Assembly (NCBI RefSeq): GCF_000170755.1
Contig: NZ_ABCK01000025.1
Coordinates: forward strand, 1-64,000
Reading direction: 5' to 3'
Length of the DNA stretch: 64,000 nt
Source: Lentisphaera araneosa HTCC2155
Lineage (GTDB): Bacteria; Verrucomicrobiota; Lentisphaeria; Lentisphaerales; Lentisphaeraceae
The translations under genes were made by a program, and so were the position numbers. Below the pieces are notes generated by a model, which had not been told where the DNA came from, did not search any database, and saw only the letters and a program-made list of their open reading frames with translations. Below, one piece after another: positions 34,966 through 51,564 of the stretch (the stretch's first letter is position 1; the number at the start of each line of letters is the position of its first letter).

Positions 34966-35215
34966 ATAATTCATTAGATAAGGTAAAATTTTATGCCTCT
35001 TGATCCAGGAACTGCCACTTACACGATTGTAGATACAAATGATGTCTTATTCAACTCTGATATAGATGGGCAAGCCGATGGTTTGTCAGGCATTACAATA
35101 AATATTGAAAGTCCCGCAATTGGACATACGGGGAGCATTAACGGAACTAACGGTTTAGATAGTTTTATAGTAGATGCCAACAACGTTAATATATCGTCAG
35201 CATCATTTTATAATA

Positions 35216-35223
35216 ATTTGGAT
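35216..35223 (+). repeat. Target site duplication, left copy
   Basis: ATTTGGAT directly before the left end of the ISL3 element. Confidence 0.9.
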
Positions 35224-36572
35224 GGTTCTTTCTCATTTTTTGTGGATAGATGCTCCAAGGAGTATTGTTAAGCTTATCAAAATAGGAGCTAATGATGACC
35301 GAACAACTTTTTGCAGAAATGTTAAATCTCGGGGATAAATGGGAAGTTAGTAAACTAGAAGTTTTGGCAGAGCAATCATGTATTGAAGTGACAATTAAAG
35401 ATACAGCTAAACTTTTAGAAGGTATGGAATGCCCTTGTTGTAAGAGAACCGATTTAATTATAAAAGATCATGCAAATGAAAGGCTATGGGATCATCTACA
35501 AATGTGGACTTATAAAACTGTATTAAAATGCCGATTGCCTCGTGCCCTTTGTAAATCCTGTAAAAAAACGTGGACAATTCGAGCTCCTTGGGAAGGTGTC
35601 AATAAACATTCCAGTAAAGACTTTGAGGCATTAGCCTTGACCCTCATGCGTCATATGCCCGTGTCAAAAGTAGGTAAATTAATGAAAGTTGATGATCAAA
35701 AATTATGGAGGATTCTAAGAGTATATATTGATAAAGAACGGGCCAAACTTGACTGGAGTGAACTCACGAGAATTGGAGTAGATGAGTTGAGTATCGCAAA
35801 AGGTCATCGTTATGTAAGTGTTTTTGTGGATATGGAAAACCATAGTGTTCTATTCGCTGCAGACGGCAAAGATGCACAAGTTTTTGAACAATTCACCGAG
35901 GAACTTTACCTGAAAGACGGTCACCCTCATGCAATTACTGAAGTTAGCATGGATATGAGTCCCTCTTATAAAAGTGGCGTTGATTCAAATATGCGCAATG
36001 CTCGTAAAGTATTTGACTACTTCCATATTGCACAAAACTTAAACAAAGCAATTGGCAAAGTTTGTTCCAGAGAGCGCCGTACAAAAGGTGATATTCGAAA
36101 CCTCCTAAAAAAGCCTCGTTTATTTCAAAAGAACAGAGACAAACTCAAGGAAAAAGATCAGCAAACTATAGAAAAATTAAAAGAGCTGAACACTGCAACA
36201 GCCATGGCATACCAAATGCGCTTAAGTCTCCAAGATATTTTTAAAACGAAGTCCGAAATCAAAGCTTTGTTAGGGTTAAAAGCATGGATATCTTGGGTTC
36301 ATAATGAAGCTGAAAAAGAAATGTGGAAATACTTTTTAAACCCTCTAAAGAAATTTGCCGAATCTCTTACAAAACATTTTGATGGAATTATTGCTCGATG
36401 GAGGCACGGAACAAGTAATGCTGTATTGGAAGGAATTAATTCCGTTTTCTCAGCAGTTAAAAGACGGGCCAGAGGGTTTAGATCTAAAGAATATCTAAAA
36501 ATGATGCTCTATTTCACTAAAGGAAATTTAACTGGGATACCAAACCTCATCCCCTCAAAGTGAGAAAGAACC
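35224..36572 (+). mobile_element. ISL3-family insertion sequence (1,349 bp)
   Basis: The left end GGTTCTTTCTCATTTT and the reverse complement of the right end GGTTCTTTCTCACTTT form terminal inverted repeats of about 25 bases with few mismatches. They are flanked by perfect 8-bp duplications ATTTGGAT. The GG-x-TCTTT terminus and 8-bp duplication are typical of ISL3. One transposase gene fills it. Intact ends and an intact gene suggest a recent insertion. Confidence 0.93.
35292..36563 (+). CDS. ISL3-family transposase (423 aa)
   Basis: The N-terminal zinc-ribbon-like Cys pairs are at CPCC and CKSC, and IRAPWEG precedes a helix-turn-helix. The DDE domain begins RIGVDELSIAKGHRYVSVFVDMENHSVLFA, continues with VSMDMSPSYKSGV and VFDYFHIAQNLNKAI, and ends with the Glu region GTSNAVLEGINSVFSAVKRRARGFRS. 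AGGAG lies at the usual distance before the ATG. Full length for the family. Confidence 0.93.
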   Translation: MMTEQLFAEMLNLGDKWEVSKLEVLAEQSCIEVTIKDTAKLLEGMECPCCKRTDLIIKDHANERLWDHLQMWTYKTVLKCRLPRALCKSCKKTWTIRAPWEGVNKHSSKDFEALALTLMRHMPVSKVGKLMKVDDQKLWRILRVYIDKERAKLDWSELTRIGVDELSIAKGHRYVSVFVDMENHSVLFAADGKDAQVFEQFTEELYLKDGHPHAITEVSMDMSPSYKSGVDSNMRNARKVFDYFHIAQNLNKAIGKVCSRERRTKGDIRNLLKKPRLFQKNRDKLKEKDQQTIEKLKELNTATAMAYQMRLSLQDIFKTKSEIKALLGLKAWISWVHNEAEKEMWKYFLNPLKKFAESLTKHFDGIIARWRHGTSNAVLEGINSVFSAVKRRARGFRSKEYLKMMLYFTKGNLTGIPNLIPSK

Positions 36573-36580
36573 ATTTGGAT
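36573..36580 (+). repeat. Target site duplication, right copy
   Basis: ATTTGGAT directly after the right end of the ISL3 element. Confidence 0.9.
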
Positions 36581-39500
36581 ACAATAACCGTTAATGGTGA
36601 TAATATTAACTTTACATTATTGGATACAGGTTCTGGTGCAGATGTAGTTAGTATTAATGGAGACTTATTTACTGCGCTTAATTTGAGTATGGATTTAGGT
36701 AATGATATCCTGAATGTGACAGGTGAAAATTCTAATATTACTTTTTTTGGGGGAGCTAACCGAGATACAATCACCTACGGCGTTGATTCAATCAACGCCA
36801 CAGGGGTTTTAAATCTTGGCAATGGCGGAGATCGCGTTTATTTAAATTCTAACGCTAGTGATTTAATTATAAATGGAGAGTCTGGAAATGATCGAATTGA
36901 AATTGATGGTGATAATTACAGTGGCGTAGTTAACGGTGGGGATTCACGCGATAATTTCTTTATTGATGGAGCGGGTTTTAGTGGCGTGATAAATGGTGGA
37001 GATGGAGCGGATAGAATTCGATTGAGGGGGACAGATTCTGCAGGTGTTGTTTATGGTGATGCGGGAAATGATAGGATAATAGTTACTCGGACAGATTCTA
37101 ACGCAGAGTTGCATACAGGTTCAGGGGCTTATACTGCGGGGAATAATACTGTTATCGTAAACAATACGCGTTTCGCAGGGATAATTTACCTTGAAGGAGA
37201 TAGCGATACAGTAGACCTTAGGAAAAATAACTTCCAAGGCACGATAGATGGGACTAATGGGCTGGATGATAGTGTTGTTCTAGATAGAACTAGTAACGCA
37301 GAAATGACTTTGATTGACTTGGAAAATGTCACTTTGACTGCTGGTAGATCGACAATAGTTAATGCTTCGGGATCAACGATTAGTGGTTCTAATGGAGATG
37401 ATGTTTTAACATTAGCTAATTTGACTTCGAGTACTTTAGATTTTGGTACTGGTAGCGATACGCTTTCTTTTTCTGATGCGGGTTTTGTAGCTTTAGACGA
37501 TAATTCAGATTCTGAACTGGGTCTCAATGAACTGATTGCTGAGGGTATTCAAAACCTTGATGTCATTGATCTTGGGTCTAGTGGACAAATAATCAACGTC
37601 TCTGCGTCAGATATCATCTCCATCTCAGAAACTGGGACTCTCCGATTTACAGGGACTAATGGCTCTGTAACAAGCTCTCTTGAGACTTGGGAGCAGCAAG
37701 AAAATGTTGTTGATGGAGGCACCATTTTTGAGGTTTATACGAATGGTGGAGCTAATTTAGAAATTCAACGAGATATAGACGAAGATATTTCGAACCCAAT
37801 TACAGTAATTAATGCGACTGATGATATAGCTAAATTCGGTGTAATTGTCGATGGCAAAAATGATGGGGATCAACTTGGTGGTGAAGTTTCTGATGCAGGA
37901 GACTATAATGGCGATGGTTTTGACGACTATTTAGTCACGGCAAAATTTAACGATGATGGAGGAACTGATGCGGGTACTTCATATATTGTTTTTGGTAAAG
38001 AACAGCCCGACGACCAAAGCGCATCTAATTTGGGGAATAACCGTATACGTAGGATTCGGGGTGACCAAGGTGATGACTTTGCCTACAAGGTTTCATCTGG
38101 TGGAGACCTTAATGGTGATGGTTATGATGATCTAATTGTGGGAGCCTGGGGTTTCGATGGATTAGGAGAGGACAGTGGTCGTGTGTATATTATTAAAGGG
38201 AGTGAATCGGTTGGTAGTATTAATCTTGGGAATCTAACAAATGTTAATGATCCTGATCTTATTGTTCTGACTACCTTAAACGAACAGGCTGGATCAGTGA
38301 CAGGTTTTTCACTAGATGGTGCTGGAGACGTGAATGGAGATGGTATAGATGATTTACTTATTGGAGCACCATGGGCATCTGAGAATGGCACTAGATCTGG
38401 AACGAGTTATTTGATTTACGGTGATACAGACCTTAGCGATGTCGATCTAGACAATTTAGGTAGTTCGGGAATAAAAATAACAGGAGAAAGTATTCAAGAT
38501 TGGAGTGGTTTTTCGGTCTCATCAATAGGTGATGTGAATGGAGACGATCTTGACGATATATTGATTGGATCCTTTAGAAATGGAGCTGACGATAAAGGGG
38601 CAGCATATTTAATTTTTGGGGATACCTCTCATTCAGATATAGATTTGTCTAATTTAACAGGTGTGGGTCTTAAAATAACAGGAGCAAATGCATTTGATTA
38701 TAGTTCATACTCAATTTCATCAGCTGGCGATATTAATGGAGATGGCTTTGATGACATAATGATAGGCTCTCCAACCAATAGCTATTATACTTATGGGAGA
38801 GTTCATGTAGTATACGGTGATAATACTCTAGGTAACGATATTGATTTATCGGCCTTGTCATCATCCGAGGGTATAACAATTAACGCCGCAGAAGCAGGGG
38901 ATTATACAGGTATTAGTGTTGCATCGGCTGGCGATGTGAATGGTGATGGTTTTGACGACATTGTGATTGGAGCGGCTTATAGTTCAGTAGGCGAGGTTTA
39001 TGCAGGTGCGGCGTATGTCGTATTTGGTGGTGATACCCTTAGTGATACCTCTCTAGATTTATTGGGAAGCTCTGGCTTGACTATTTTAGGTAATACGACT
39101 GGAGATTTTTTTGGTATTGATGTGAGTGGAGCAGGTGATATCAACGGAGATGGTTATGATGATATTGTTGTCGGAGCGCCATATCATGACTCAGGAACTA
39201 ATGCGGGTAGTGCGTATGTGATTTTAGGTCAAGACTTCTCTGATGGGGGGAATAATATTCAAGAAGTGAGCGGTTCTGACTCTGCAACAGGCTCAGATTG
39301 GCATTTAATAGGTGATAGTACGTCAAATACTTTATTTAGTATAGGTGTGAATTCAGGTAATCCGGAATCGGCCTCTGCAGGTGCAGGAGATGATTTGGTT
39401 GTTATTAATAATCAAAATTTTCGGCGAGTTGATGGTGGGAGCGGTATTGATACATTACGTGTTAATGTAAATAATATTAATCTAGGTGACTTTAATAGTA

Positions 39501-39864
39501 AAATTAGAGATTTTGAAATTCTAGAAATTAATGGCAGTCGCAGTATGACTATTGACCTTGATTTAATTCAGAGTCTCCCAGATTCACTCATTATAGGAGA
39601 CGAGACAAGTGCATTAAGAGTTGAAGGAAGTGGTTCAGTCGATTTCGGCTTGATTGATTGGATAGACAATGGCTCTCTTGATTTGGATGGTAATACCTAT
39701 CAGCATTACTCCCATAGCACATATACCGAGACTGACCTACTCATTCAAAATTCAGTGACAATTATTTAGTTGTAAGTAAGTTTAACTTATACAAATCAAA
39801 TACTTGTTTTTCGATTTCTCAGCTATTTTATTTTGAATTAATGCGTCAAAAAAAGAATTTAACA

Positions 39865-39903: not shown

Positions 39904-40047
39904 ATGAAGAAAAATTTTAAAAAAAAGAATTGGCAAAGCCCTCAAGTTAATGAATTAGAGGTACTGAGTTCAACTTTTGGGGGAAATAACCCTGCGATTT
40001 TAGAGTCTGGTAAAAAGAAATTTGGGCGTCGTTATATTGGTAGTTAG
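39904..40047 (+). CDS. Lasso peptide precursor A1 (47 aa)
   Basis: Below the usual ORF cut-off. The leader is MKKNFKKKNWQSPQVNEL followed by EVLSSTF; W10-x-x-P13 stands where lasso leaders have Y-x-x-P, and T24 is 11 residues after P13. With Thr at the usual -2 position the core would be residues 26-47, starting GGNNPAILE with E34 at core position 9, allowing a 9-residue Gly-Glu macrolactam. The tail is Lys/Arg-rich (GKKKFGRRYIGS) and ends in Ser. The gene lies 134 bases after the FG-GAP gene and upstream of the cupin and kinase genes. Family features are shared with A2 and A3. No strong ribosome-binding site is seen. Confidence 0.82.
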   Translation: MKKNFKKKNWQSPQVNELEVLSSTFGGNNPAILESGKKKFGRRYIGS

Positions 40048-40361: not shown

Positions 40362-40520
40362 CTAACTACATATTCTATTAGTAGGTGGGTTCTGCCGCTT
40401 TACCCTCCTTAATTCACATCTTCTATTATACCTTTCTTCACCACTCTTTGTACCACCGGCTAATGTGCTGGGACTAATAAATATAATTGCAATGCTTGGT
40501 GAGCTCCATTGTTTTTTCAT
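40362..40520 (-). CDS. Lasso peptide precursor A2, antisense to A1 (52 aa)
   Basis: On the minus strand from ATG at 40520. The leader is MKKQWSSPSIAIIFISPSTL with W5-x-x-P8 and T19 exactly 11 residues after P8, as in A1. With Thr at -2 the core starts AGGTKSGEE, with E28 and E29 at core positions 8 and 9. The tail is strongly basic (YNRRCELRRVKRQ) and has Cys at core position 15 and near the end; it ends RICS. Its direction is opposite to A1 and A3 but the same as the biosynthetic genes further on. It could start an independent transcript, having a -10-like box upstream. Confidence 0.75.
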   Translation of the reverse strand: MKKQWSSPSIAIIFISPSTLAGGTKSGEERYNRRCELRRVKRQNPPTNRICS

Positions 40521-40714: not shown

Positions 40715-41182
40715 GTGAACATACGTGCCAAAGAACTAATTGAAACTCTAGAGTTGATTGAGCATCCGGAAGGTGGTTACTACAAAGAGACCTATCGCTC
40801 GAGTGAAAATGTCTTTTCTCACCCTGCAGAATCCGAACGATCCGCCGTCACGGAGATCTACTTTTTATTATGCAAAGGGCAAGTGAGTCGTTTCCATAAA
40901 GTATTACATGATGAGTTTTGGCATTTTTTCGAGGGAGCTCCCTTGCGCTTGATTGCTGGAGATTTACAGAGCTTTGAAGAATTTGAGTTAGGAGGAGCTT
41001 CAACAAATTATCAGCACTGTATTCAGGGTGGTCGTTGGCAAGCGGCGGAAAGTACAGGTAATTATACTCTCGTAGGTTGTACAGTGGCGCCTGGCTTTGA
41101 TTTTGCGGACTTCGCATTTCTATCCGAAGCGAAAGCCGATTTAATGAAACAGAACTTCGCGAATTTCGCAAAGTTTATCTAA
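40715..41182 (+). CDS. DUF985 cupin-family protein (155 aa)
   Basis: LELIEHPEGGYYKETYRSSE is the DUF985 (cupin_5) opening. TEIYFLLCKGQVSRFHKVLHDEFWHFFEGAPLRLI gives the His-containing cupin strand, and GCTVAPGFDFADFAFLSE the closing one. The start is GTG; an ATG 11 codons' worth upstream is out of frame and stops at once. It sits 10 bases before the first HPr-kinase-like gene, so the two are probably one operon. Family function is unknown (sugar-related in some views). It may simply be a host gene caught beside the lasso locus. Confidence 0.82.
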   Translation: MNIRAKELIETLELIEHPEGGYYKETYRSSENVFSHPAESERSAVTEIYFLLCKGQVSRFHKVLHDEFWHFFEGAPLRLIAGDLQSFEEFELGGASTNYQHCIQGGRWQAAESTGNYTLVGCTVAPGFDFADFAFLSEAKADLMKQNFANFAKFI

Positions 41183-41192
41183 TAGGGTTTTT

Positions 41193-42089
41193 GTGTTCAA
41201 ATATTTTGCTTATGGCCTAAAAGTCACTTCAGAAATTGAACTCGATGAGTTGATTGTCAGGGACTTTAAAGGCGAAGCTGATATAGAAATTGTATTTGGT
41301 GAAACACCAGATCAAATCAATGGCCCTGATTGGTATGGGGACTGGTGGCAGGCTAATGATTATTGTCTACTGTGTGATTTTACCGATGTCATCCGAGCCT
41401 TAGTCTCTAGAAATGGTAAAGAAGTAACTTTGCAAGTCTTTACCGAAGATGACTTTCAACTGCGTAGTTTCATTTATGGTCAGGTATTGAGCGCCTGCTT
41501 GCTGTTGCGAGGATACTTCCTACTTCATGGAGCCTGTGTGAAAATAGGAGATAGAGCCGTTGGTTTTTGTGGCTCATCTGGTGTGGGTAAGTCAACATTG
41601 ACTCTGGCTTTTATGGAAGAGGGGTACACAGTTTATTCTGATGATGTCATTGCCTTGAAGGTCGAAGGTGATAAGTTGATGATGCATCCAGGCTTCCCAC
41701 GTTTACGAGTCACGAAAGAAACAATGACCCGGATGTCAGTGAGGGCAGCGGATTTTGAAAATATTGATCATTTCCCCACAAAGTTAAATTATGTGAAGGG
41801 TTTTAGTTTTTGCAGCGATGAAATTGAGTTGGATGAGTTACTTATTTTGAATCCCACAGACTGCACCAAGCCAAATATAAGAAATGTGAGTGGTTGGGAG
41901 AAGTTAAATCTCTTTGAAGAAGGCCACTATCGAAAAAGTATCGAGAAACTGATTTATTCTGAGAAAGATATGCTGAAAAGACGTACAAAAATTGCGAATA
42001 TCGCTAAGTGTCATTACTTGGATCGCCCCAATACATACTATTGCTTAATGCAAATGATTGACTACATAAATCTTAAGTTTCATTTGTAA
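41193..42089 (+). CDS. HPr-kinase-like protein 1, candidate lasso peptide kinase (298 aa)
   Basis: The N-terminal ~100 residues are a mixed alpha/beta region. The C-terminal half has Walker A GSSGVGKST (about 128-136), the HprK-type YSDDVIAL and HPGFPRLRV. HPr-kinase-like genes in RiPP loci such as those of paeninodin encode enzymes that phosphorylate the C-terminal Ser of the lasso peptide. All three precursors here end in Ser. GTG start. A second homologue is at 46361-47212. The cupin gene precedes it and precursor A3 follows 93 bases downstream. Confidence 0.8.
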   Translation: MFKYFAYGLKVTSEIELDELIVRDFKGEADIEIVFGETPDQINGPDWYGDWWQANDYCLLCDFTDVIRALVSRNGKEVTLQVFTEDDFQLRSFIYGQVLSACLLLRGYFLLHGACVKIGDRAVGFCGSSGVGKSTLTLAFMEEGYTVYSDDVIALKVEGDKLMMHPGFPRLRVTKETMTRMSVRAADFENIDHFPTKLNYVKGFSFCSDEIELDELLILNPTDCTKPNIRNVSGWEKLNLFEEGHYRKSIEKLIYSEKDMLKRRTKIANIAKCHYLDRPNTYYCLMQMIDYINLKFHL

Positions 42090-42217
42090 ATGGGGTGATT
42101 TCACCATATATACTTAGTATTAGGTGGATAGGATTTTATTTCTATTACTTGTATATTCAGTTAATTTAAGGATGCATTTGCGATGAAAAAAAAATGGTTG
42201 AAACCTACTGTAATAAG

Positions 42218-42225
42218 TCTGTCGA
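42218..42225 (+). repeat. Target site duplication of nested insertion, left copy
   Basis: TCTGTCGA, inside precursor A3. Confidence 0.8.
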
Positions 42226-44621
42226 GGTAGTGTCCCAAATTTTCTGTAAATTCTGCTATTGCTCTGCTTTAAGAGTTATGAATAGCTTCCGAGACTTCGC
42301 GAGAATGGGAACTTTCTCGTCGGAGCGAAATTGAGGAAGTTGTTTGTAACTCGGGGTAAAGAAGATGCAGAGTGGTGTTGCACCAAAACAACCCACAAGG
42401 AATTATTATGCACCACTCTACACAAGAAAACAGTAGCGTCTTATTAGAAATGATCCAACAAGTTACAGAAAACGGCGAAAGCGGAATACTTGAAGCGATG
42501 AGAGTTTTATTAAATGAAGCGATGAAAGTGGAGAGAAGTAATTCTCTTGAAGCTGATCCATATGAACGTAATGAAAGTCGCTTGGGTTATGCTAATGGCT
42601 ATAAAAATAAAACTGTAAACACTCGACTTGGAGCAATGAAGCTTAATATCCCTCAAGTCAGAGGTGAAATTGATTTTTATCCAAGTTCTTTGGAGAAAGG
42701 CTTGCGAAGTGAACGAGCTTTAATGACAGCTATGGCAGAGAGTTATATTCAGGGGACATCGACTAGAAAGGTGACTAAACTTTTAGAGAAAATGTGTGGT
42801 CTATCTGTAAGTAAATCACAGGTATCCCGTGTGGTAACTGAGCTAGATGAGAGTTTAGAAAAGTGGCGCAACCGTCCTTTAGGTAAATATTCTTATCTTT
42901 TGGTGGATGCGAGATACGAGAAGGTTAGAGTAGATAAGACTGTTCGAGATTGTGCTTTACTTATTGCCTATGGAATAGATGAATCAGGAAAACGTTCAGT
43001 CCTCGGAACAAGTGTTTCTTTAAGTGAAGCGGAAGTTCATTGGAGGAACTTTTTTCTGTCATTGAATGCTCGAGGACTCCATGGCCTCAAGATGATTACC
43101 AGTGATAGTCATTCGGGCCTAAAAGCAGCGTTAAAGACTGTATTTGGTTCTATCCCATGGCAGAGATGTCAATTTCACTTACAGCAAAATGCTGGTGCTT
43201 ATGTCCCTAAGAAAGCTATGCGCTCAGAAGTAGCTCAAGATATTAGAGATATCTTTAATGCACCTTCAAAGCTTGAGGCTGAAAGGCTTTTAAAGCTTAC
43301 TCCTGAATCCGTGAGCTGTTTCTGAAAAAACACCGTAAAAACAAGAAAACCTGTTGGTTTACATTAATTTAAGTTACCACACCAAAATCACCCAACAGGT
43401 TTCTTCATGAATAAAGCATTTAAACTCGCTACTGGCAATGATTCTCTTCACAGTTTTGGTGGAATATATCTCGCCGGTCAAGTACTCCATCAAAGTGAAA
43501 TAGATCAAACATTCAATACAGAGCATAAAGCAAATCATACCTTTCAGGATATAGATATCTTTAAGTCACAAATAGGTTTGCTGGTTCAAGGTCGTGAGCG
43601 CTACACAGACATAAATCAGTTTCGTGAAAATGAAGTCTTTAGCAAATCGCTTGGATTAAATAGTGTGCCCTCAGAGGAACGACTTCGCCAACGCCTGGAA
43701 ACGATGCCATCCAAGCATAAAAGCCTTTTGAAGCAAGCGAATACAAAGCTTCTTAAAAAGCAGTCGGTAGGTCAAATTTCAAAAGGTGGCATGGATTTCA
43801 TTCCACTTGATATGGACGTTTCACCCATGGATAATTCCGGTAGTCAAAAAGAGCATGTATGCTGGACATACAAAAACCACGATGGTTTTTCTCCCATGTT
43901 TGCTTATATCGGAACTCAGGGTTTTATGCTCAATCAGGAATTACGACCAGGATCACAGCACGCACAGAAAGGAATGCCGCAGTTTTTAGACGAGAGTTTT
44001 ACTATGGTCAAAGAACTTAATCTTAATCACCCAGTTCTACTTCGCTTAGATTCTGCTCATGGTGCTGAAATTAACTTTGATCACCTACCAGAAGACCACT
44101 ACTTTTTGATAAAACGAAACCTTCGAAAAGAAGATAAAGTTCAGTGGCTTGCTAATGCGCGACGCCTTGGCCGTCAACTCAAATCGCGTGATGGCAAGAA
44201 TATATTGGTGGGAGAAGTTCATCATAAGTCTCCGGGCAACAATGAAAAACGTAGCGCGATTCCTTTAATCTTTAAGGTTACAGAGCGATTGGAAGATCAA
44301 GACGGCAATAAGCTCTTAATACCTGAGATAGAAGTTGAAACATATTGGACAAACCTCCCTTAAGAAGCTGAAGATGTAATTGATCTCTACCATGATCACG
44401 GAACCAGCGAACAGTATCATAGCGAACTCAAAACCGATATGAATGTGGAACGCCTACCTTCGGGCAAATTCGTGGCAAACCAGTTTTTTCTGCACTGCGC
44501 CATGCTCGCCTTTAATATTCTCAGAGTTATCGGTACTCACCTAATCAAGAATAAACCGTTGGCTCCTGTAAAAATTAAAGGCCAACGACGACGTTTACGT
44601 TGCGTGATACGGGACTCTATC
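42226..44621 (+). mobile_element. IS256-family element with IS1380-type element inserted, right part deleted (2,396 bp)
   Basis: The left end GGTAGTGTCCC matches the reverse complement of the right end (GATAGAGTCCC) at 9 of 11 bases, and an 8-bp direct repeat TCTGTCGA flanks both. Inside, the IS256-type transposase gene is interrupted near 43300 by an IS1380-type element. Its own end and the second half of the IS256 transposase are missing. The composite is therefore dead but still marks the original insertion site. Confidence 0.72.
42408..43325 (+). pseudogene. IS256-family transposase, C-terminally truncated
   Basis: MHHSTQE opens the protein; an upstream in-frame ATG is at 42372. YERNESRLGYANGYKNKTVNTRLGAMKLNIPQVR, LMTAMAESYIQGTSTRKV, YLLVDARYEKVR with a catalytic Asp, GLKMITSDSHSGLKAAL and PWQRCQFHLQQNA are classic IS256 blocks. 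A full enzyme has about 400 residues. Here homology stops around codon 300 (LLKLT) and the frame runs into the second IS. Confidence 0.88.
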
Positions 44622-44633
44622 TCTGTCGATTGA
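43407..44633 (+). pseudogene. IS1380-type transposase with in-frame stop and lost 3' end
   Basis: Begins MNKAFKLATGNDSLHSFGGIYLAGQVL. PLDMDVSPMDNSGSQKEHVCWTYKNHDGFSPMFAYIG carries the first DDE Asp block, LLRLDSAHGAE the second, and GTSEQYHSELKTDMNVERLPSGKF the Glu block. A TAA at 44361-44363 interrupts the frame between YWTNLP and EAEDVIDLYHDHG; reading continues in the same frame after it. The end (CVIRD) runs directly into the IS256 right end and target duplication, so its own terminal repeat is missing. Confidence 0.82.
44622..44629 (+). repeat. Target site duplication of nested insertion, right copy
   Basis: TCTGTCGA, followed in frame by the rest of precursor A3. Confidence 0.8.
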
Positions 44634-44773
44634 TCATTACACATATACGGGTGGTGGTGATAACGGTATAGAGAACAATAGTAATCGTTGTGGTAGGACT
44701 AAGGGGAAGGGGCAGGATAAGAAATGCGCGAGTTAATTATGTATGTCGCTTACTCCCAAAGCGAGTCTAAGAT

Positions 44774-46333
44774 TTACTTTCGATAGAGTTCTTTACAAGC
44801 AATAAGTAGGTATATGGGGATTGTGGGATGTTTCTCTTGATGAGCTTGCTTAATATAATGCTGATTAATGTGGGGCAAATCAAAAACTTGATCTAACTCA
44901 GAGTTAAGAGTAGTCCAAACTTCATCTAAGCCGGGGACGATACTGCCTCCAATGCTTTTGTCATAGTTGTAGCGTATGGTTTTTGGTGTAAGGTCGGACA
45001 TGGATTCGTTTCGAAAGAGATAGCGATTTTGATTGAGGTAGACTTTACAGTGCGTAGGTAAGGAATTGAAAAAATCAATGAGTTTAATATCGAGTAAAGG
45101 GTAACGGTATTGTAAGCCGAACTCTGCGCCTAATTGATAAGATTCTTCAAGGCGCTGAGCAGTATGTCTCCTGTCGGGAAGTAGGTATTTCGTGTATTCA
45201 AAAGTGCTTTTTCTTGGTAGGCCATGGTTTTGCTTTTGTGGGGGGAGGCGGAATTCCGGTTTGAGAAAGTTTTGGTCAAAGGAGTTGTCAAAAAAAAGTG
45301 GCTTGCTCTTGAAGAAGTATTTATAGATAATATGAGAAAAAGTGTAGGGCCATAAAATAGGGCGGCGGTTTTTAGCTTCGATGTAGATATGACCCCATTG
45401 GTGGTTTTTAATGAATTCTGCATAAGCACAGCCGCTAGCTCTTTGACTCACCCCCTCATCGCCACCGAAGCCTGAGAAAATAATTTTGGAACCTGATTCA
45501 CTTGCGGCCTGCATAAGTTGACGAGCCCATTCACCCACACCTGCTCTTGGCGGTTGAGCTAAATGTGTAGTTGCCCAACGACAATCATCAGCAATGTTGA
45601 CATTTTTTTTTGTGATCAGTTTGTGTTTGATTTCCGGGTGCATTTCTAGAAAGTCATTAACCAAATAACGTTCATCATTACCGTGCTCTGCGGCATGAGT
45701 AAAGCTATGTATTGCACTGTCAATTTTTGAAGCAAGTGCGGTAATGGTAGTGGAGTCAACACCTCCCGTAAGCTCACTTGCCAGCGGAGTATCATCAACA
45801 GGAAGTCTTTGTTTGACGGCATAAGTCAATTTTTCTCTAAAAAGTCTGCAAGCTTCTTCACGGCTAATATTAATAGTTTCAGGTTTCGTCATTTGCCAAT
45901 AGCGAGAGATTTTTAAGTTCCCATTTTTATAATGAAGTGAATGAGCTGGTGGTAAGCGAAAAATATTGCTATAAGCCGTTTCGTGTTCCTCTTCTTCCCA
46001 GTCATTTAAATAACGTATGACCCAATCATCATTGATTTGCGGAGTAATTTCAGGGTTATGGACGAGGTCTTTGAGTTTAGTGGAATAGAATATCTTATCA
46101 TTTTGGAAGCAGTAGAAAAACGGGATGACACCTAAATGATCTCTGGCACCAAAGTATTCGTTCTTAGTTTGATCGTGAATGAGGAAGGAAAAGTCACCGT
46201 AGAGTTTATTTACAAAGTTATTTTCTGTTTGGGTAAATAATGATAAAACGTATTCTTCAGCTTGTTCTGCTAAAGATGAATGAGAGTAAATATGGATATC
46301 ACCTTGGATATCAAGCTGAGAGTGAGAAAGCAT
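44774..46333 (-). CDS. Lasso cyclase, asparagine-synthetase-like protein C (519 aa)
   Basis: An N-terminal glutaminase-like region (YGDFSFLIHDQTKNEYFGARDHLGVIPFFY) lacks the catalytic Cys2, as expected for a lasso cyclase that does not use glutamine. The synthetase domain has the PP-loop ELTGGVDSTTI (about residue 190) and SGFGGDEGVS. These enzymes adenylate the ring Asp/Glu side chain and close the macrolactam. It ends the minus-strand operon, 27 bases after kinase gene 2, and converges on the broken precursor A3. Confidence 0.88.
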   Translation of the reverse strand: MLSHSQLDIQGDIHIYSHSSLAEQAEEYVLSLFTQTENNFVNKLYGDFSFLIHDQTKNEYFGARDHLGVIPFFYCFQNDKIFYSTKLKDLVHNPEITPQINDDWVIRYLNDWEEEEHETAYSNIFRLPPAHSLHYKNGNLKISRYWQMTKPETINISREEACRLFREKLTYAVKQRLPVDDTPLASELTGGVDSTTITALASKIDSAIHSFTHAAEHGNDERYLVNDFLEMHPEIKHKLITKKNVNIADDCRWATTHLAQPPRAGVGEWARQLMQAASESGSKIIFSGFGGDEGVSQRASGCAYAEFIKNHQWGHIYIEAKNRRPILWPYTFSHIIYKYFFKSKPLFFDNSFDQNFLKPEFRLPPQKQNHGLPRKSTFEYTKYLLPDRRHTAQRLEESYQLGAEFGLQYRYPLLDIKLIDFFNSLPTHCKVYLNQNRYLFRNESMSDLTPKTIRYNYDKSIGGSIVPGLDEVWTTLNSELDQVFDLPHINQHYIKQAHQEKHPTIPIYLLIACKELYRK

Positions 46334-46360
46334 GTGTTTTTATCTTTTAGTGATCTTTAT

Positions 46361-47212
46361 TTACTTTAAAGCTTTTTTAATAAGTTCAAAACATTCTAAG
46401 CGAGACTCTTTGTGATTGGGGCGCTTTAATTTAAAAACTCGAAGTGTTTTTAAAATATCGAAAGATTGTTGATTAAATTGAGCCGTTAATTCAATGGAGT
46501 CGATCACAGGACGTTGGTAGTAGCTCGACCAAAATGTGGTTACTTTTTCTGTTCCAGTCACTTCCTTAAGCTGAGGGCTATTCAGGGAATCATCAGTTTC
46601 TAGATAAATGAGGATGTCTAATTCTTTATCTACGTCAACTCTTTGTGATGAAGTATCGAGTTTATACTTCTCTTCATTATTCCAGAGTTTAGAGACAAGA
46701 GATGAGTTAAACTTGTTATAATCTAGATCATTTTTCCATAAGCGAAGAAAGGGGAAGCCCGGCAAAGTGATATTGCTCAGTTTGTCGAAACAAATAATTT
46801 CATCACAGAAGAATAGAGCTCCATTTTTGTGAAATTGAGCGGCTAAGCTAGATTTTCCTACGCCTGATTCTCCGCAAAAAGCAATGTGTTGATCAGTCCA
46901 TATGCAACTGTTGCCGTGAAGTAATAAATGCCCTCTTTGAAAGAGGAGTAAGCCAGTGATAAAGCTATGGAGATAGTCATTAAATGAGAGTTTATTGGCT
47001 ATGAAATTATAGACAATTTGATTTCCATTAGAGATATAGAAAGTGCCTGTATTCTCAAATTCTACAATGACTTTATTTGCGTTGAGGCCTAAGTTTGGAT
47101 AAAGCTGGATTGTTGACGATTTAGTATTCGGGATGGAGCCTTCATTTAGCCTAATGTTTTCAAATAAGCCATAGGAGCCGTTATTTAGCATGGTCTTATC
47201 GAGTTTATTCAT
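46361..47212 (-). CDS. HPr-kinase-like protein 2, candidate lasso peptide kinase (283 aa)
   Basis: Same architecture as the protein at 41193-42089: a divergent N-terminal half, then LLLHGNSCIW and Walker A GESGVGKSS (about residue 122), CDEIICF and LPGFPFLRLW. It is inside the B1-YkgJ-kinase-C gene string with 25- to 27-base gaps, so it belongs to the lasso operon. Two kinases for several precursors might divide substrates or steps; this is inference. Confidence 0.82.
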   Translation of the reverse strand: MNKLDKTMLNNGSYGLFENIRLNEGSIPNTKSSTIQLYPNLGLNANKVIVEFENTGTFYISNGNQIVYNFIANKLSFNDYLHSFITGLLLFQRGHLLLHGNSCIWTDQHIAFCGESGVGKSSLAAQFHKNGALFFCDEIICFDKLSNITLPGFPFLRLWKNDLDYNKFNSSLVSKLWNNEEKYKLDTSSQRVDVDKELDILIYLETDDSLNSPQLKEVTGTEKVTTFWSSYYQRPVIDSIELTAQFNQQSFDILKTLRVFKLKRPNHKESRLECFELIKKALK

Positions 47213-47237
47213 GAGTCAAGCTGCGCATTGTTTATGA

Positions 47238-47765
47238 TCACTTAGTTTTAGGCGCTTTTCTAGCCGTTTTTTCTTTATGGTGAAATTGTGAGAGGCGATT
47301 TTCGTAAGAAGCCCATTCCAGTAAGAGCTGACTATGCTGAATTCTAAATTTTTTTGTTTTGAGCTCGTTTTTGTTTTTCTCTAAAAAAGCATAATAAGCT
47401 TCTTTAAGTAATTGAGTTTCTTTGATGTTTGGGATGAGTTTTTTTAGCCGAATTTTTTGATCTTTGATTTGTTCGATTTTTTTTTTGATTTCATCGAATT
47501 CAAGCTTTCCATTAGAGAATTTACTTAATAAACGACATTTGAAATCACCGCAAATAGCAGGCCGGTTATGATCATAGACAGTACAACATTTATCAAAATA
47601 TTGACAGGGAAGTTTGAACCAATAAGAATCATCGACTATTTCAACTCCCATTTTAGGAAGTAGAGCTTCATTTTTGAAAGATGTAGCCCTTGTGAAGAGA
47701 GTGCCGTCGCAACAAAAACCACAGTCTTTGCAGAGTTCTTGTTCTTGATTTTGACTTGTGGCCAT
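47238..47765 (-). CDS. YkgJ-type cysteine-cluster protein in lasso operon (175 aa)
   Basis: CKDCGFCCDGTLF (about residues 12-24) is the C-x2-C-x2-CC signature of YkgJ/FliB-type putative metal-binding proteins, with more Cys at PCQYFDKCCTVYDHNRPAICGDFKC. A long charged helix (LEFDEIKKKIEQIKDQKIRLKK) follows. Its stop is 3 bases from the B1 start, so it is tightly co-expressed. I know no role for this family in lasso pathways; a metal-dependent modification of the peptide is one option. Confidence 0.75.
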   Translation of the reverse strand: MATSQNQEQELCKDCGFCCDGTLFTRATSFKNEALLPKMGVEIVDDSYWFKLPCQYFDKCCTVYDHNRPAICGDFKCRLLSKFSNGKLEFDEIKKKIEQIKDQKIRLKKLIPNIKETQLLKEAYYAFLEKNKNELKTKKFRIQHSQLLLEWASYENRLSQFHHKEKTARKAPKTK

Positions 47766-47768
47766 TAA

Positions 47769-48047
47769 CTAATGTGAAATTAAGGTTTTTTTATCAATCA
47801 TATCGAGGATAAAAGTCATGCAGTCTTTTTCACACTGTGCCTCAGTAACATCAAATTCTTGCATGAGTATAGGGAGTATTTGCTCAAGAGATTGGGGCTC
47901 ATCGAGAAGCTCCCAAATGATTGAGCCAATGGGGTCGAGTCCAAAGTACTTGCCTTCTTCAATACTCATCATCACCACTTCATCATCAATTTTGCTGGAG
48001 ATAATTTCAGGATTGCGTTGTAAGACTGTGTCATTTGTTAATTTCAT
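47769..48047 (-). CDS. PqqD-type RiPP recognition protein B1 (92 aa)
   Basis: VVMMSIEEGKYFGLDPIGSIIWELLDEPQSLEQILPILMQEFDV is the PqqD fold signature (Y-x-L-N/D-x-x-G-x-x-I-W). In lasso systems with split B proteins, B1 binds the precursor leader through its Y-x-x-P motif and presents it to B2. The leaders found here have W-x-x-P, so the pocket may differ slightly. Confidence 0.88.
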   Translation of the reverse strand: MKLTNDTVLQRNPEIISSKIDDEVVMMSIEEGKYFGLDPIGSIIWELLDEPQSLEQILPILMQEFDVTEAQCEKDCMTFILDMIDKKTLISH

Positions 48048-48157
48048 ATTTTGTGAACCTAAATTAAACTTATGTATGAATAGAATATTTTCAGTTTAGA
48101 TGGATTCAATTCTTTGTTCAAGAAATGATAGTTAAATTAGACTTCTTTACTAAGTTT

Positions 48158-49930
48158 TTAGCTTTTAAGCATGTTAAAATAAAGTCCTCTCAGCTTCATA
48201 AGCCCCTCATGAGTTCCTATTTCTTTTATTTCCCCTTTCTCTAGTACAATGACCTGATCGACATCTTTGATGGTGCTGAGGTTGTGAGCGATAATCAGGG
48301 TGATGAGGTCATTTTTATTTTCAAAAACAGCTTTTTGAATAAGTCGTTCATTGATGGAATCTAAATGACTTGTCGCTTCATCGAGAATGATGAGGTCGGC
48401 TTTTGCTGCAAAGGCGCGAGCTAAACAGAGGCGTTGTTTTTGACCCCCTGAGAGTTTGATGCCATTTTCTCCGATGTAGGAGTCTAGACCAAGTTCTAAG
48501 GAGTCAATAAAATCATGGAGTTGAGCTTTTTGGCATAATTCGATTAAATCTGAACTTGTCAGTTCAGTATTGCCGTAAAGGATATTGTCACGAATGGTGC
48601 CATCGAAAACAAAGTTCGCCTGGTGAACGATGGCCAAATGTTGGATGTAATTTTCTTTGTTGAGTTCCTGGAGTTCGATTCCATTAATAAGGATATTGCC
48701 GATAGAAGCTTTTTGGAACCCACATATAAGGTCGGCTAAGGTGCTTTTCCCTGAACCACTTGTTCCTACAAGGGCATAGGTTTTTCCTTTTTGCATAGTA
48801 AAAGAAATGTTTTCTAGTACTGGCTTATCGGGAAGATAGGAGAAGTTTAAGTTGACGATTTTAATTTTTTCAATACATTTATCAAGCTTTTTCCTGTTGG
48901 AGTCAGGGGGATTATCGAGTTCTTCTGACAAGATCTTGTGATAGCGCTCGAGGCAGGCGAGTCCACCTTGAGTTGAACTGATAGAAGAAAGGATATTGAA
49001 AATGGGATTCATAAGTTGAGCTGTGAAAAATTGTACTACCACTAATTCACCTAAGCTCATATGACCTCGAATGATCATGATGGAACCACCTGCCAGCATG
49101 AGGGCAGCCGCAATAGCCTGCATAAATGACCAAAGAGTGTAGATACCTTGTATTTGAAGGTTTGATTTGAGGCGAGTGTCATTGAGGTCGAGGTGGCGTT
49201 GGCTATGTTGAGATATTTCTTCTGCTTCTTTTGCATGAGAGCGAACAGTGCGTATGCCTTGAAAGACCTCGCTTAAAAAGCCGTGGATCACAGCTTGCTT
49301 ATCATAGATTTCATTTTGCAGAGGGCGCGTTTTTTTGGTGAGGAACATACAGAGAATTGTGAGAGTTCCGATGATCAATAGTATCAAAAGGGCAATCCAC
49401 GGACTCAAGTAAAAGCAGTAAGCAAGGATGACGCTTAGACGAAGTAGGGCGTTGATAGGGGTGAGGATCAGTTGATTACTGAGGCCAGTGATTTGATTGA
49501 TGTCGTTAGTAAAACGAGAAAGAAGCTCTCCTGACTTTGTCTTGTTGAAAAAGTTTATGGGCAAGTGAAGCACGTGTTTATAGAGCTTGTCTTGAAGGCT
49601 ATGGTTGAAAGAGGTTCTAAAACGTAGTTGAACTTGATTTTGGATAATATTTAAAACTTCGCTTAAAACGTAGGCTAAGAACAGTGCGCCAGCCCAGAGC
49701 AAAATTTCTTTTTCAATTTGTGGAGAGTTGGCCAGTTCTCTCCCGCTCAGGTAGCCATCAACAATTTGGCCACTTATTAAAGCGGGAATCAAGCCTAGAG
49801 CATTCGCAATAATAGACAGCAAAAGTGAAAAGGAAATGATTTCCCTATAGTGAGAAATCTGTTTAAGAAAAACTTTCATCTGAGTGATGAAATCCTTGGT
49901 GAAAAAGAACTCTAAACGTTTTCTAATCAT
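48158..49930 (-). CDS. Lasso peptide ABC exporter D (590 aa)
   Basis: Six membrane segments in the N-terminal half (e.g. IISFSLLLSIIANALGLIPA), then an ATPase domain with Walker A GTSGSGKST, signature LSGGQKQR and Walker B ADLIILDEA. No N-terminal peptidase domain is present, as in lasso exporters. I start at MIRKRLEFFF (49930), which overlaps the B2 gene by 8 bases; the open frame reaches 50041. It probably exports the mature peptide and gives self-protection. Confidence 0.88.
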   Translation of the reverse strand: MIRKRLEFFFTKDFITQMKVFLKQISHYREIISFSLLLSIIANALGLIPALISGQIVDGYLSGRELANSPQIEKEILLWAGALFLAYVLSEVLNIIQNQVQLRFRTSFNHSLQDKLYKHVLHLPINFFNKTKSGELLSRFTNDINQITGLSNQLILTPINALLRLSVILAYCFYLSPWIALLILLIIGTLTILCMFLTKKTRPLQNEIYDKQAVIHGFLSEVFQGIRTVRSHAKEAEEISQHSQRHLDLNDTRLKSNLQIQGIYTLWSFMQAIAAALMLAGGSIMIIRGHMSLGELVVVQFFTAQLMNPIFNILSSISSTQGGLACLERYHKILSEELDNPPDSNRKKLDKCIEKIKIVNLNFSYLPDKPVLENISFTMQKGKTYALVGTSGSGKSTLADLICGFQKASIGNILINGIELQELNKENYIQHLAIVHQANFVFDGTIRDNILYGNTELTSSDLIELCQKAQLHDFIDSLELGLDSYIGENGIKLSGGQKQRLCLARAFAAKADLIILDEATSHLDSINERLIQKAVFENKNDLITLIIAHNLSTIKDVDQVIVLEKGEIKEIGTHEGLMKLRGLYFNMLKS

Positions 49931-50372
49931 CAGAAACCTCGTGAGTGAAGCTGTTGATGACTGTGTATTCTTCAATGCCATTATCGCCAGTGACAATATA
50001 CTGTTGATGACGCAACCATGCATGAGCTTTGATTTCGCCATCTTCTTTTTTAAGGCCTAAATAGAGTGTGGACTCAAGTTTTTTTTTATTGAGGATTCTT
50101 TGCCCAGCGATCGCCTGTGGAAAGCAGACACATTTCCAAGGAAGTAGTTCAGCTATTCGAAAAATGAGGTGCTTAAGGAGCTTGATCTCATTTGAGATGG
50201 AGGATTCATTTTGAGGAGATTCACTTTCGCTCTGACCCAAAGTTTTGGCAAGGTTTTTAAATTCCTTAGTTTTGAGCTGTAGGCAGGCTAAGTTGAGCTC
50301 AAGAAAAACTTCTAAAGCTAAGAACTTGATTTTAAAGGGGAGTTTAATGAAAGTGAGAAAGCTTTTAAGCAT
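49923..50372 (-). CDS. Lasso leader peptidase B2, transglutaminase-like (149 aa)
   Basis: PWKCVCFPQAIAGQRILNKKKLESTLYLGLKKE, then IKAHAWLRHQQYIVTGD, is the lasso B2 signature: catalytic Cys (C83, before FPQA), His117 in AHAWL and a downstream Asp. It removes the leader after B1 has bound it. It overlaps both neighbours by 8 bases (methyltransferase before, exporter after), so the three are translationally coupled. Confidence 0.88.
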   Translation of the reverse strand: MLKSFLTFIKLPFKIKFLALEVFLELNLACLQLKTKEFKNLAKTLGQSESESPQNESSISNEIKLLKHLIFRIAELLPWKCVCFPQAIAGQRILNKKKLESTLYLGLKKEDGEIKAHAWLRHQQYIVTGDNGIEEYTVINSFTHEVSDD

Positions 50373-51564
50373 TGTCGGTAATCACTATAGAGGATTGATT
50401 ATTTTTAAAAGAATAAGTAAAGTTTACTGTTTGATTTGTGTATAAAACTTGAGCTGATTCTAGGACGTAAATAGAGTTTCCCCAGTTGTTTCGTGAGTCA
50501 GATTCATTAGGATGCAGTGTAAGTAGTGTATGAGGAGATAGTTTGGAGTTGAAGTAGATTAAAAAACCATTTAGGACTCCATCGATTTGAGATTTGAAAG
50601 AGCCTTGTATTGATAGGGTTTCATTACTTATTTTACTAAGAACGATTTTGGAAATTAAGAGAGGTTCGCTAAAAGTGGGGAAGTCCTTGCATTTATGTGA
50701 TCCAAGTTCGATTAATCTATTACTAGTAGGAGTGTTGAGGAGTTCTGAAAAATCTATTTGGTAGGCATTCTTCCAGTCAGAGCAAGTTCTCTTGGTGAAA
50801 AAGTACTTGTTGATAAGCTTCGTTGGTACTGTTAAAGGCAATAGATATATTTCTAAGGTTTGAGGAATGAGACGAGCCTCAGGCTTAAGAAGTCTTTTAC
50901 AAGCATCTTTTGTAGTGGGTATTATGCGTTCATTCAGTGGGTCATTACCGATAATTTCACTGACTAAAACACTGGCTTTTTCAGGGAGATGTATTTCAGT
51001 TGATAAACCTTCGAGTAGAGTGATTTTATCATTTAGCCTATTCTTTGCAAAGTTGCGTTCTGCAACTTTCCCCAACTCTGTTGCCTCAATTGCATAAACA
51101 TGTTTGGCGCCTGCTTGTGCCGCAGTGATGGCAAGTACTCCAGTTCCAGTTCCTATATCGACGACTATGTCATTTTCGCTTACGACTTCACGAATTGCTT
51201 TTTGGTAAGCTAGAGTTCGAGTTTTATCATTGAGCATGCGAATATGAACGGGGGCAGAATCAAAGTTTGCAGAGTTGGTGCCGATTACTATGGCGGAGTT
51301 ATCTGGCGAAGTTATTAAACCAATATTGATAGCTTGATTTAGAGTAGTCGTCAATTGAACCCAATGGGAGTGGCTGCTAGATAAGGTGGTCAGTTTTTGA
51401 ATGATTTCATTGTAGCTGATTGGCAGTGTCGTAACGGCAAGAATAGAAAAAATAGAATCCGATAAATAATAAGTTTTTTTGTTGATGATTACTTTTACCT
51501 GTCGTCGCGAAGAGGCAATAATCTCATATCTCTTGTTAGTTTGTAAAATCTGTTCAGGATTCAT
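50365..51564 (-). CDS. PRMT-like methyltransferase in lasso operon (399 aa)
   Basis: HIRMLNDKTRTLAYQKAI matches the H-x-x-M-L-x-D-x-x-R opening of protein arginine methyltransferases. VVDIGTGTGVLAITAAQAGAKHVYAIEA is the SAM site, and LVSEIIGNDPLNERI sits where PRMTs have their double-Glu loop. The N-terminal ~85 residues (YYLSDSIFSILAVTTLPISYNEIIQKL) look like a PqqD-type winged helix, possibly a leader-binding domain. It is the first gene of the coupled run with B2 and the exporter. Methylation of Arg in the basic tails is the natural guess; Lys or the C-terminus are alternatives. Confidence 0.78.
   Translation of the reverse strand: MNPEQILQTNKRYEIIASSRRQVKVIINKKTYYLSDSIFSILAVTTLPISYNEIIQKLTTLSSSHSHWVQLTTTLNQAINIGLITSPDNSAIVIGTNSANFDSAPVHIRMLNDKTRTLAYQKAIREVVSENDIVVDIGTGTGVLAITAAQAGAKHVYAIEATELGKVAERNFAKNRLNDKITLLEGLSTEIHLPEKASVLVSEIIGNDPLNERIIPTTKDACKRLLKPEARLIPQTLEIYLLPLTVPTKLINKYFFTKRTCSDWKNAYQIDFSELLNTPTSNRLIELGSHKCKDFPTFSEPLLISKIVLSKISNETLSIQGSFKSQIDGVLNGFLIYFNSKLSPHTLLTLHPNESDSRNNWGNSIYVLESAQVLYTNQTVNFTYSFKNNQSSIVITDNA

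What the first reader, a model, noticed from the sequence alone, without database searches (positions are those of the whole stretch)
39904..40047. Precursor A1: predicted 9-residue ring GGNNPAILE with a Lys/Arg tail
The 47-residue frame has W-x-x-P in the leader and Thr at -2 if the core starts at Gly26. Glu34 then falls at core position 9, a normal ring acceptor. Alternatively the ring could start at Gly27 (8-residue ring, Thr at -3).
Basis: partly seen in the sequence, partly recalled or inferred. Interest (0 to 1): 0.85.

Follow-up and report, generated by a model that had tools for sequence, protein, structure and literature searches.

The report
Phosphorylated lasso-peptide precursor, Lentisphaera-type genome
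A short gene encodes the raw peptide for a lasso-shaped natural product whose tail is probably tagged with phosphate; its processing genes lie nearby and include an enzyme of the arginine-methylating family that recurs in lasso gene clusters of several other phyla but was not found described in the papers searched.

Summary
The 47-codon frame at 39904-40047 (+) is a real lasso-peptide precursor gene beside a lasso cluster (C, B1, B2, ABC transporter, two HPr-kinase-like proteins). Precursors from two same-genus genomes find it at E = 8.4e-6, and all seven intact precursors of the genus, plus the C-terminal half of an eighth, share Thr(-2) and Glu(+9). This supports Gly26 as core residue 1 and a Gly26-Glu34 ring GGNNPAILE, and argues against the Gly27 alternative. 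So A1 most likely makes a paeninodin-type, tail-phosphorylated lasso peptide with a basic 13-residue tail. Two neighbouring precursors occur: A2 (40362-40520, -) and A3, split by insertion sequences. The cluster also carries a PRMT-fold methyltransferase with an RRE-like N-terminal domain; relatives lie beside lasso genes in several phyla, and no paper in the library links PRMT to lasso peptides. That A1's Arg residues are methylated is a hypothesis. A1 is a new member of a known class; the PRMT tailoring module would be a new variant.

The parts
39904..40047 (+). Lasso precursor A1 (47 aa). Leader 39904-39978 (W10 39931-39933, P13 39940-39942, Thr24 at -2 39973-39975)
39979..40005 (+). Predicted macrolactam ring GGNNPAILE (Gly26 N-terminus to Glu34 side chain, 9 residues)
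   Evidence: Thr(-2)/Glu(+9) conserved in 7/7 intact genus precursors
40006..40044 (+). Predicted loop and tail SGKKKFGRRYIGS; C-terminal Ser47 (40042-40044) is the predicted phosphorylation site
   Evidence: C-terminal Ser in 6/7 intact precursors plus split A3; two HPrK-like proteins in the cluster; known chemistry PMC9266682
40362..40520 (-). Lasso precursor A2 (52 aa), predicted core AGGTKSGEERYNRRCELRRVKRQNPPTNRICS
   Evidence: leave-one-out profile E = 2.8e-5; Thr(-2), Glu9, C-terminal Ser
42184..42231 (+). N-terminal fragment of precursor A3 (MKKKWLKPTVISLSR), ends at insertion-sequence junction
   Evidence: (weak profile hit)
44632..44736 (+). C-terminal fragment of precursor A3 (...DHYTYTGGGDNGIENNSNRCGRTKGKGQDKKCAS)
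   Evidence: (E = 0.02)
42372..43325 (+). Mutator-family (IS256-like) transposase, truncated; part of the insertion splitting A3
   Evidence: Pfam Transposase_mut 2.2e-75
43407..44633 (+). Second insertion sequence (DDE_Tnp_1_4 transposase, broken frame) inside the first
40715..41182 (+). Cupin_5 (DUF985) protein, conserved next to HPrK-like kinase 2 in all three genus clusters
41193..42089 (+). HPrK-like kinase 2 (His112, Lys133, Asp150-Asp151)
   Evidence: Hpr_kinase_C 2.2e-6, HprK_rel_B 2.9e-10, alignment
44774..46333 (-). C protein, Asn-synthase-like lasso cyclase; lacks about 60 N-terminal residues of the glutaminase domain in all three species
   Evidence: NF033535 6.3e-60, below its cut-off; alignment
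46361..47212 (-). HPrK-like kinase 1 (His-Lys-Asp-Glu)
47238..47765 (-). YkgJ-like CxxCxxCC protein, conserved in the genus clusters
47769..48047 (-). B1, PqqD-family leader-binding protein (RRE)
   Evidence: NF033536 80.1 bits, cut-off 80
48158..50041 (-). D, ABC transporter
49923..50372 (-). B2, transglutaminase-like leader peptidase (Cys83, His117)
   Evidence: NF033537 73.2 bits, cut-off 33; alignment
50365..51564 (-). PRMT-fold methyltransferase with RRE-like N-terminal domain; Arg-binding double-E loop E203/E212
   Evidence: PRMT8 3.5e-23; alignment; AlphaFold pLDDT 87; Foldseek PRMT7/PRMT3, about 1e-21
36560..39769 (+). FG-GAP repeat protein directly upstream of A1; its 5' part is cut off by an ISL3 element at 35292-36563
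   Evidence: a counterpart sits next to the orphan precursor in G195

Best explanation
A1 is the ribosomally made precursor of a phosphorylated (paeninodin-type) lasso peptide. Inferred order: B1 binds the leader at W-x-x-P; an HPrK-like kinase phosphorylates the C-terminal Ser47 on the linear precursor; B2 cuts after Phe25, so that Thr24 is the penultimate leader residue; C activates Glu34 and joins it to the amine of Gly26, giving the 9-residue ring GGNNPAILE threaded by the tail SGKKKFGRRYIGS, with Arg/Tyr/Phe as likely steric locks; the ABC transporter exports it. Shown here: the frame, its relatives, the conserved Thr(-2)/Glu(+9)/C-terminal Ser, and the enzyme genes. Inferred: expression, cleavage, ring, threading, phosphate. 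The PRMT-like enzyme may also methylate Arg42/Arg43 (about 0.35).
For: Cluster with B1, B2, C, transporter and two kinases within 12 kb; B2 found once in the whole genome. A1 recovered by precursors of other genomes. Thr(-2)/Glu(+9) in 7/7 intact genus precursors with otherwise unlike cores. C-terminal Ser in 6/7 intact plus split A3; both kinases keep His-Lys-Asp-Asp/Glu, the motif reported for lasso kinases (PMC9266682). Same-class cluster L069 with a kinase has precursor ...KTE|GGWIHWWYEDSPWFQS: Thr(-2), Gly1, Glu9, terminal Ser.
Against: No expression or mass data. No clear ribosome-binding site, and no promoter above shuffled background, upstream of A1. The FG-GAP gene upstream is interrupted by an insertion sequence and A3 is split, so the locus may be decaying. 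C lacks part of its N-terminal domain (in all three species). One genus precursor (G212a) ends in Lys. The kinases are far below NCBIfam cut-offs for named HprK families, so kinase specificity is by analogy.
Confidence: 0.85

Rival explanations
1. The core starts at Gly27 and the ring has 8 residues (Gly27-Glu34, Thr at -3).
For: Gly27 is an allowed first residue and 8-residue rings exist among lasso peptides (BsfA: Gly1-Asp8, PMC10368454).
Against: Anchoring on Thr(-2) puts Glu at +9 in all intact genus precursors, also where the next residue is not Gly (Ser-Thr-Ser in G212a, Ser-Gly-Ala in G212b). Penultimate Thr is the known rule with few Ile/Val exceptions (PMC10368454).
Confidence: 0.07
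2. A1 is an intact-looking but silent or relic precursor: the upstream FG-GAP gene with which it may have been co-transcribed is cut by an insertion sequence, and the locus is losing precursors.
For: ISL3 element at 35292-36563 inside the FG-GAP gene; A3 split by two insertion sequences; in G195 the counterpart precursor overlaps the FG-GAP stop codon, implying coupling; no convincing promoter.
Against: A1 itself has no stop or frameshift and keeps every hallmark residue; the gap of 134 bp to the FG-GAP gene leaves room for its own promoter; all enzyme genes are intact.
Confidence: 0.2
3. A1 is not a lasso substrate but a small protein tied to the FG-GAP surface protein.
For: The G195 counterpart lies 1.75 Mb from its lasso cluster, overlapping an FG-GAP gene.
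Against: Leader, Thr(-2), Glu(+9) and C-terminal Ser match the precursors that lie inside the lasso clusters; the FG-GAP relative in G086 has no such small gene next to it.
Confidence: 0.04

Closest known systems
Paeninodin and other HPrK-like-kinase lasso peptides (PadeA/PadeK, ThcoK, SyanK)
   Same: Split B1/B2, C, ABC transporter, HPrK-like kinase with His-Lys-Asp-Asp motif, precursor ending in Ser, Thr(-2)
   Different: Trp instead of Tyr in the leader motif, Glu9 acceptor, basic tail, two divergent kinases, several precursors of unlike sequence, PRMT-like enzyme
BsfA/BsfK (Bradymonas sediminis) phosphorylated lasso peptide
   Same: Kinase-bearing lasso cluster in a Gram-negative outside the classical producers
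   Different: BsfA is phosphorylated on Ser3, has Ile(-2), Asp8 ring and C-terminal Asp; A1 has Thr(-2), Glu9 and C-terminal Ser
Protein arginine methyltransferases (PRMT1/3/7/8), for the neighbouring enzyme 50365-51564
   Same: Fold, SAM motifs, double-E loop with the same 9-residue spacing, C-terminal barrel
   Different: Bacterial, fused to an RRE-like N-terminal domain, encoded in lasso clusters; the THW-loop His is Asn here

Membership tests
Lasso peptide precursor (class II, no Cys in the A1 core) | Precursor frame next to C, B1, B2 genes | tested here: met
Lasso peptide precursor (class II, no Cys in the A1 core) | Thr at leader position -2 | tested here: met
   Thr24; conserved in all genus precursors
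Lasso peptide precursor (class II, no Cys in the A1 core) | Asp/Glu at core position 7-9 | tested here: met
   Glu34 = +9; 7/7 intact genus precursors
Lasso peptide precursor (class II, no Cys in the A1 core) | Aromatic-x-x-P motif in the leader | tested here: met
   W10-x-x-P13, Trp in place of the usual Tyr; also Trp in Bacteroidota precursors of L083, L076
Lasso peptide precursor (class II, no Cys in the A1 core) | Isopeptide ring threaded by the tail | not testable with these tools
   needs mass spectrometry, NMR or carboxypeptidase assay
C-terminally phosphorylated (paeninodin-type) lasso peptides | C-terminal Ser in the precursor | tested here: met
   Ser47; 6/7 intact genus precursors plus split A3
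C-terminally phosphorylated (paeninodin-type) lasso peptides | HPrK-like kinase with His-Lys-Asp-Asp motif in the cluster | tested here: met
   kinase 2 His-Lys-Asp-Asp, kinase 1 His-Lys-Asp-Glu
C-terminally phosphorylated (paeninodin-type) lasso peptides | Phosphate on the C-terminal Ser | not testable with these tools
   needs enzyme assay
PRMT family (enzyme 50365-51564) | Double-E loop and PRMT C-terminal barrel | tested here: met
   E203/E212 invariant in 15/15 relatives; fold match
PRMT family (enzyme 50365-51564) | Arginine N-methylation activity | not testable with these tools
   substrate unknown
RRE (PqqD-like) domain in the PRMT-like enzyme | beta-hairpin strands followed by three helices and profile similarity to B1 | tested here: inconclusive
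   topology matches in the model; hhalign E = 3.7e-4 but probability 36%

The most novel reading that the evidence does not exclude
The cluster belongs to an undescribed branch of lasso biosynthesis in which an RRE-fused PRMT methylates arginine in the precursor tail (for A1, Arg42/Arg43) besides kinase phosphorylation of the terminal Ser, giving phospho- and methylarginine-bearing lasso peptides across several phyla.
Probability: 0.35. Interest if true: 0.75.

Novelty: new variant of a known kind. Interest (0 to 1): 0.5.

Why it matters
It extends kinase-tailored lasso peptides to a phylum for which no paper in the library reports one, with exact masses to look for. It also points to a PRMT-family enzyme as a recurring lasso tailoring gene: arginine methylation is not among the lasso modifications seen in the review read here (PMC9266682), and a guide domain fused to a PRMT would be a directly testable case of leader-directed arginine methylation.

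Tried and rejected
A genome-contig scan with the C protein alone found nothing. Searching A1 alone in 60 relatives gave only weak hits; the useful one was the G195 orphan, E = 0.23, judged real by its hallmarks and not by its E-value. Single-sequence AlphaFold of the PRMT-like enzyme failed (pLDDT 32) and was discarded in favour of the 15-sequence model. A generic FG-GAP association was tested in G086 and rejected; the FG-GAP pairing rests on two genomes only. Pfam gives no name to the N-terminal domain of the PRMT-like enzyme and a PDB profile search of it found nothing meaningful. A promoter scan around A1 gave fewer sites than shuffles.

Full report
What is there. The frame 39904-40047 (+) encodes MKKNFKKKNWQSPQVNELEVLSSTFGGNNPAILESGKKKFGRRYIGS. 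On the minus strand, 44774-51564, lie a C-type Asn synthase, an HPrK-like protein, a CxxCxxCC protein, a PqqD-type B1, an ABC transporter, a B2 peptidase and a methyltransferase; on the plus strand 40715-42089 a Cupin_5 protein and a second HPrK-like protein. B1 reaches NCBIfam's lasso cut-off (80.1 against 80) and B2 exceeds it (73.2 against 33); C is below the lasso cyclase cut-off but that is its best family. The genome has one B2. Genome size (6,023,180 bases, 81 contigs) and gene content suggest Lentisphaera araneosa, from memory and not verified.

Relatives. Two same-genus genomes (G195, G212) carry the cluster at the same place (next to hisS and an Nqr operon), each with its own precursors: G195 L025 5531-5671 and 7720-7878, G212 L026 15314-15451 and 16511-16660. 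G195 has one more precursor 1.75 Mb away (L024 11881-12033) overlapping by 4 bases the stop of a 1238-aa FG-GAP protein; A1 likewise sits 134 bases behind an FG-GAP gene. A2 lies at 40362-40520 (-). A third precursor is in two pieces: MKKKWLKPTVISLSR at 42184 and ...TYTGGGDNGIENNSNRCGRTKGKGQDKKCAS ending at 44736, with a truncated Mutator transposase and a DDE transposase between.

Test of the reading. Aligned from Thr, every intact genus precursor has exactly nine residues from +1 to a Glu: GGNNPAILE, AGGTKSGEE, AGRREADIE, GGKKAKDHE, GGAVPGHVE, STSSGGEDE, SGANDNQDE; the A3 C-terminal piece reads TGGGDNGIE. In G212a and A3 a second Thr permits another register, so six are unambiguous. Residue 1 varies (G, A, S, perhaps T) while Thr(-2) and Glu(+9) do not. 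Six of seven intact precursors and A3 end in Ser. A same-class cluster with a kinase (L069) shows the same pattern: T-E-GGWIHWWYE...QS. Profiles without A1 recover it (E = 3.4e-7; 8.4e-6 with other genomes only, 0.0077 when the orphan is also left out).

Mechanism. From established lasso chemistry (PMC9266682, PMC10368454, PMC5067487): B1 binds the leader, B2 cuts, C cyclises, and HPrK-like kinases phosphorylate the C-terminal Ser of the linear precursor. Both kinases here keep His, Lys and Asp of the reported His-Lys-Asp-Asp motif (kinase 1 has Glu last). B2 keeps Cys and His, C keeps the SGGxDS-type loop as TGGVDS. The product is predicted as Gly1-Glu9 ring, tail SGKKKFGRRYIGS, phospho-Ser22.

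The methyltransferase. 50365-51564 overlaps B2's start by 8 bases. It matches PRMTs by sequence (PRMT8 3.5e-23) and by fold (PRMT7, PRMT3; model pLDDT 87). The two Glu of the double-E loop, which bind the guanidinium in PRMTs (general knowledge), are invariant in 15 of 15 relatives. Residues 1-90 form strands plus three helices as in PqqD/RRE domains; profile similarity to B1 is weak (E = 3.7e-4, probability 36%). G195 and G212 lack it. A scan of 84,980 species genomes with a two-sequence alignment gave 17 loci; 8 have two or more of B1, B2, C within 10 kb and 11 at least one. The eight are in Flavobacteriales, Brocadiaceae, Kiritimatiellae, Cyclobacteriaceae, another Bacteroidetes MAG, Hahella, Xanthomonadales and Lysobacterales; NCBIfam confirms the B2s tested. 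The query pair was itself lasso-associated, so the fraction is not an unbiased estimate. In L083 four of five precursors, and in L076 the one found, end in Arg-Ser or Arg-Thr. Full-text searches for lasso peptide with PRMT, arginine methyl or L11 methyltransferase found no relevant paper; the library omits most subscription papers.

Verdict. The finding is right and can be sharpened. A1 alone is a new member of phosphorylated lasso precursors; with the PRMT-like gene the cluster is a new variant if that enzyme acts on the precursor, which is untested.

Noticed in passing
window 50365-51564 and L064, L074-L090: PRMT-fold methyltransferase with RRE-like N-terminal domain recurring beside lasso genes in several phyla; not found described in the searched literature.
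   Followed up: partly
L024:11881-12033 (-): Orphan lasso precursor 1.75 Mb from the cluster in G195, overlapping the stop codon of an FG-GAP/DUF4347 protein gene; A1 also follows an FG-GAP gene.
   Followed up: partly
window 42184-44736: Third precursor split by nested insertion sequences (Mutator type, then DDE_Tnp_1_4 type).
   Followed up: yes
window 34993-36563: FG-GAP gene upstream of A1 appears cut by an ISL3-family element; a 5' piece may remain at 34993-35271.
   Followed up: no
L026:15528-16388, L025:6847-7326: 2OG-Fe(II) oxygenases in the two relative clusters, not seen in the window cluster; possible hydroxylation of their lasso peptides.
   Followed up: no
L083:5742-13387: Bacteroidetes MAG cluster with five lasso precursors (W-x-x-P leaders), four ending in Arg-Ser/Thr.
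   Followed up: no
window 47238-47765: CxxCxxCC (YkgJ-like) protein between kinase 1 and B1, kept in all three genus clusters; role unknown.
   Followed up: no
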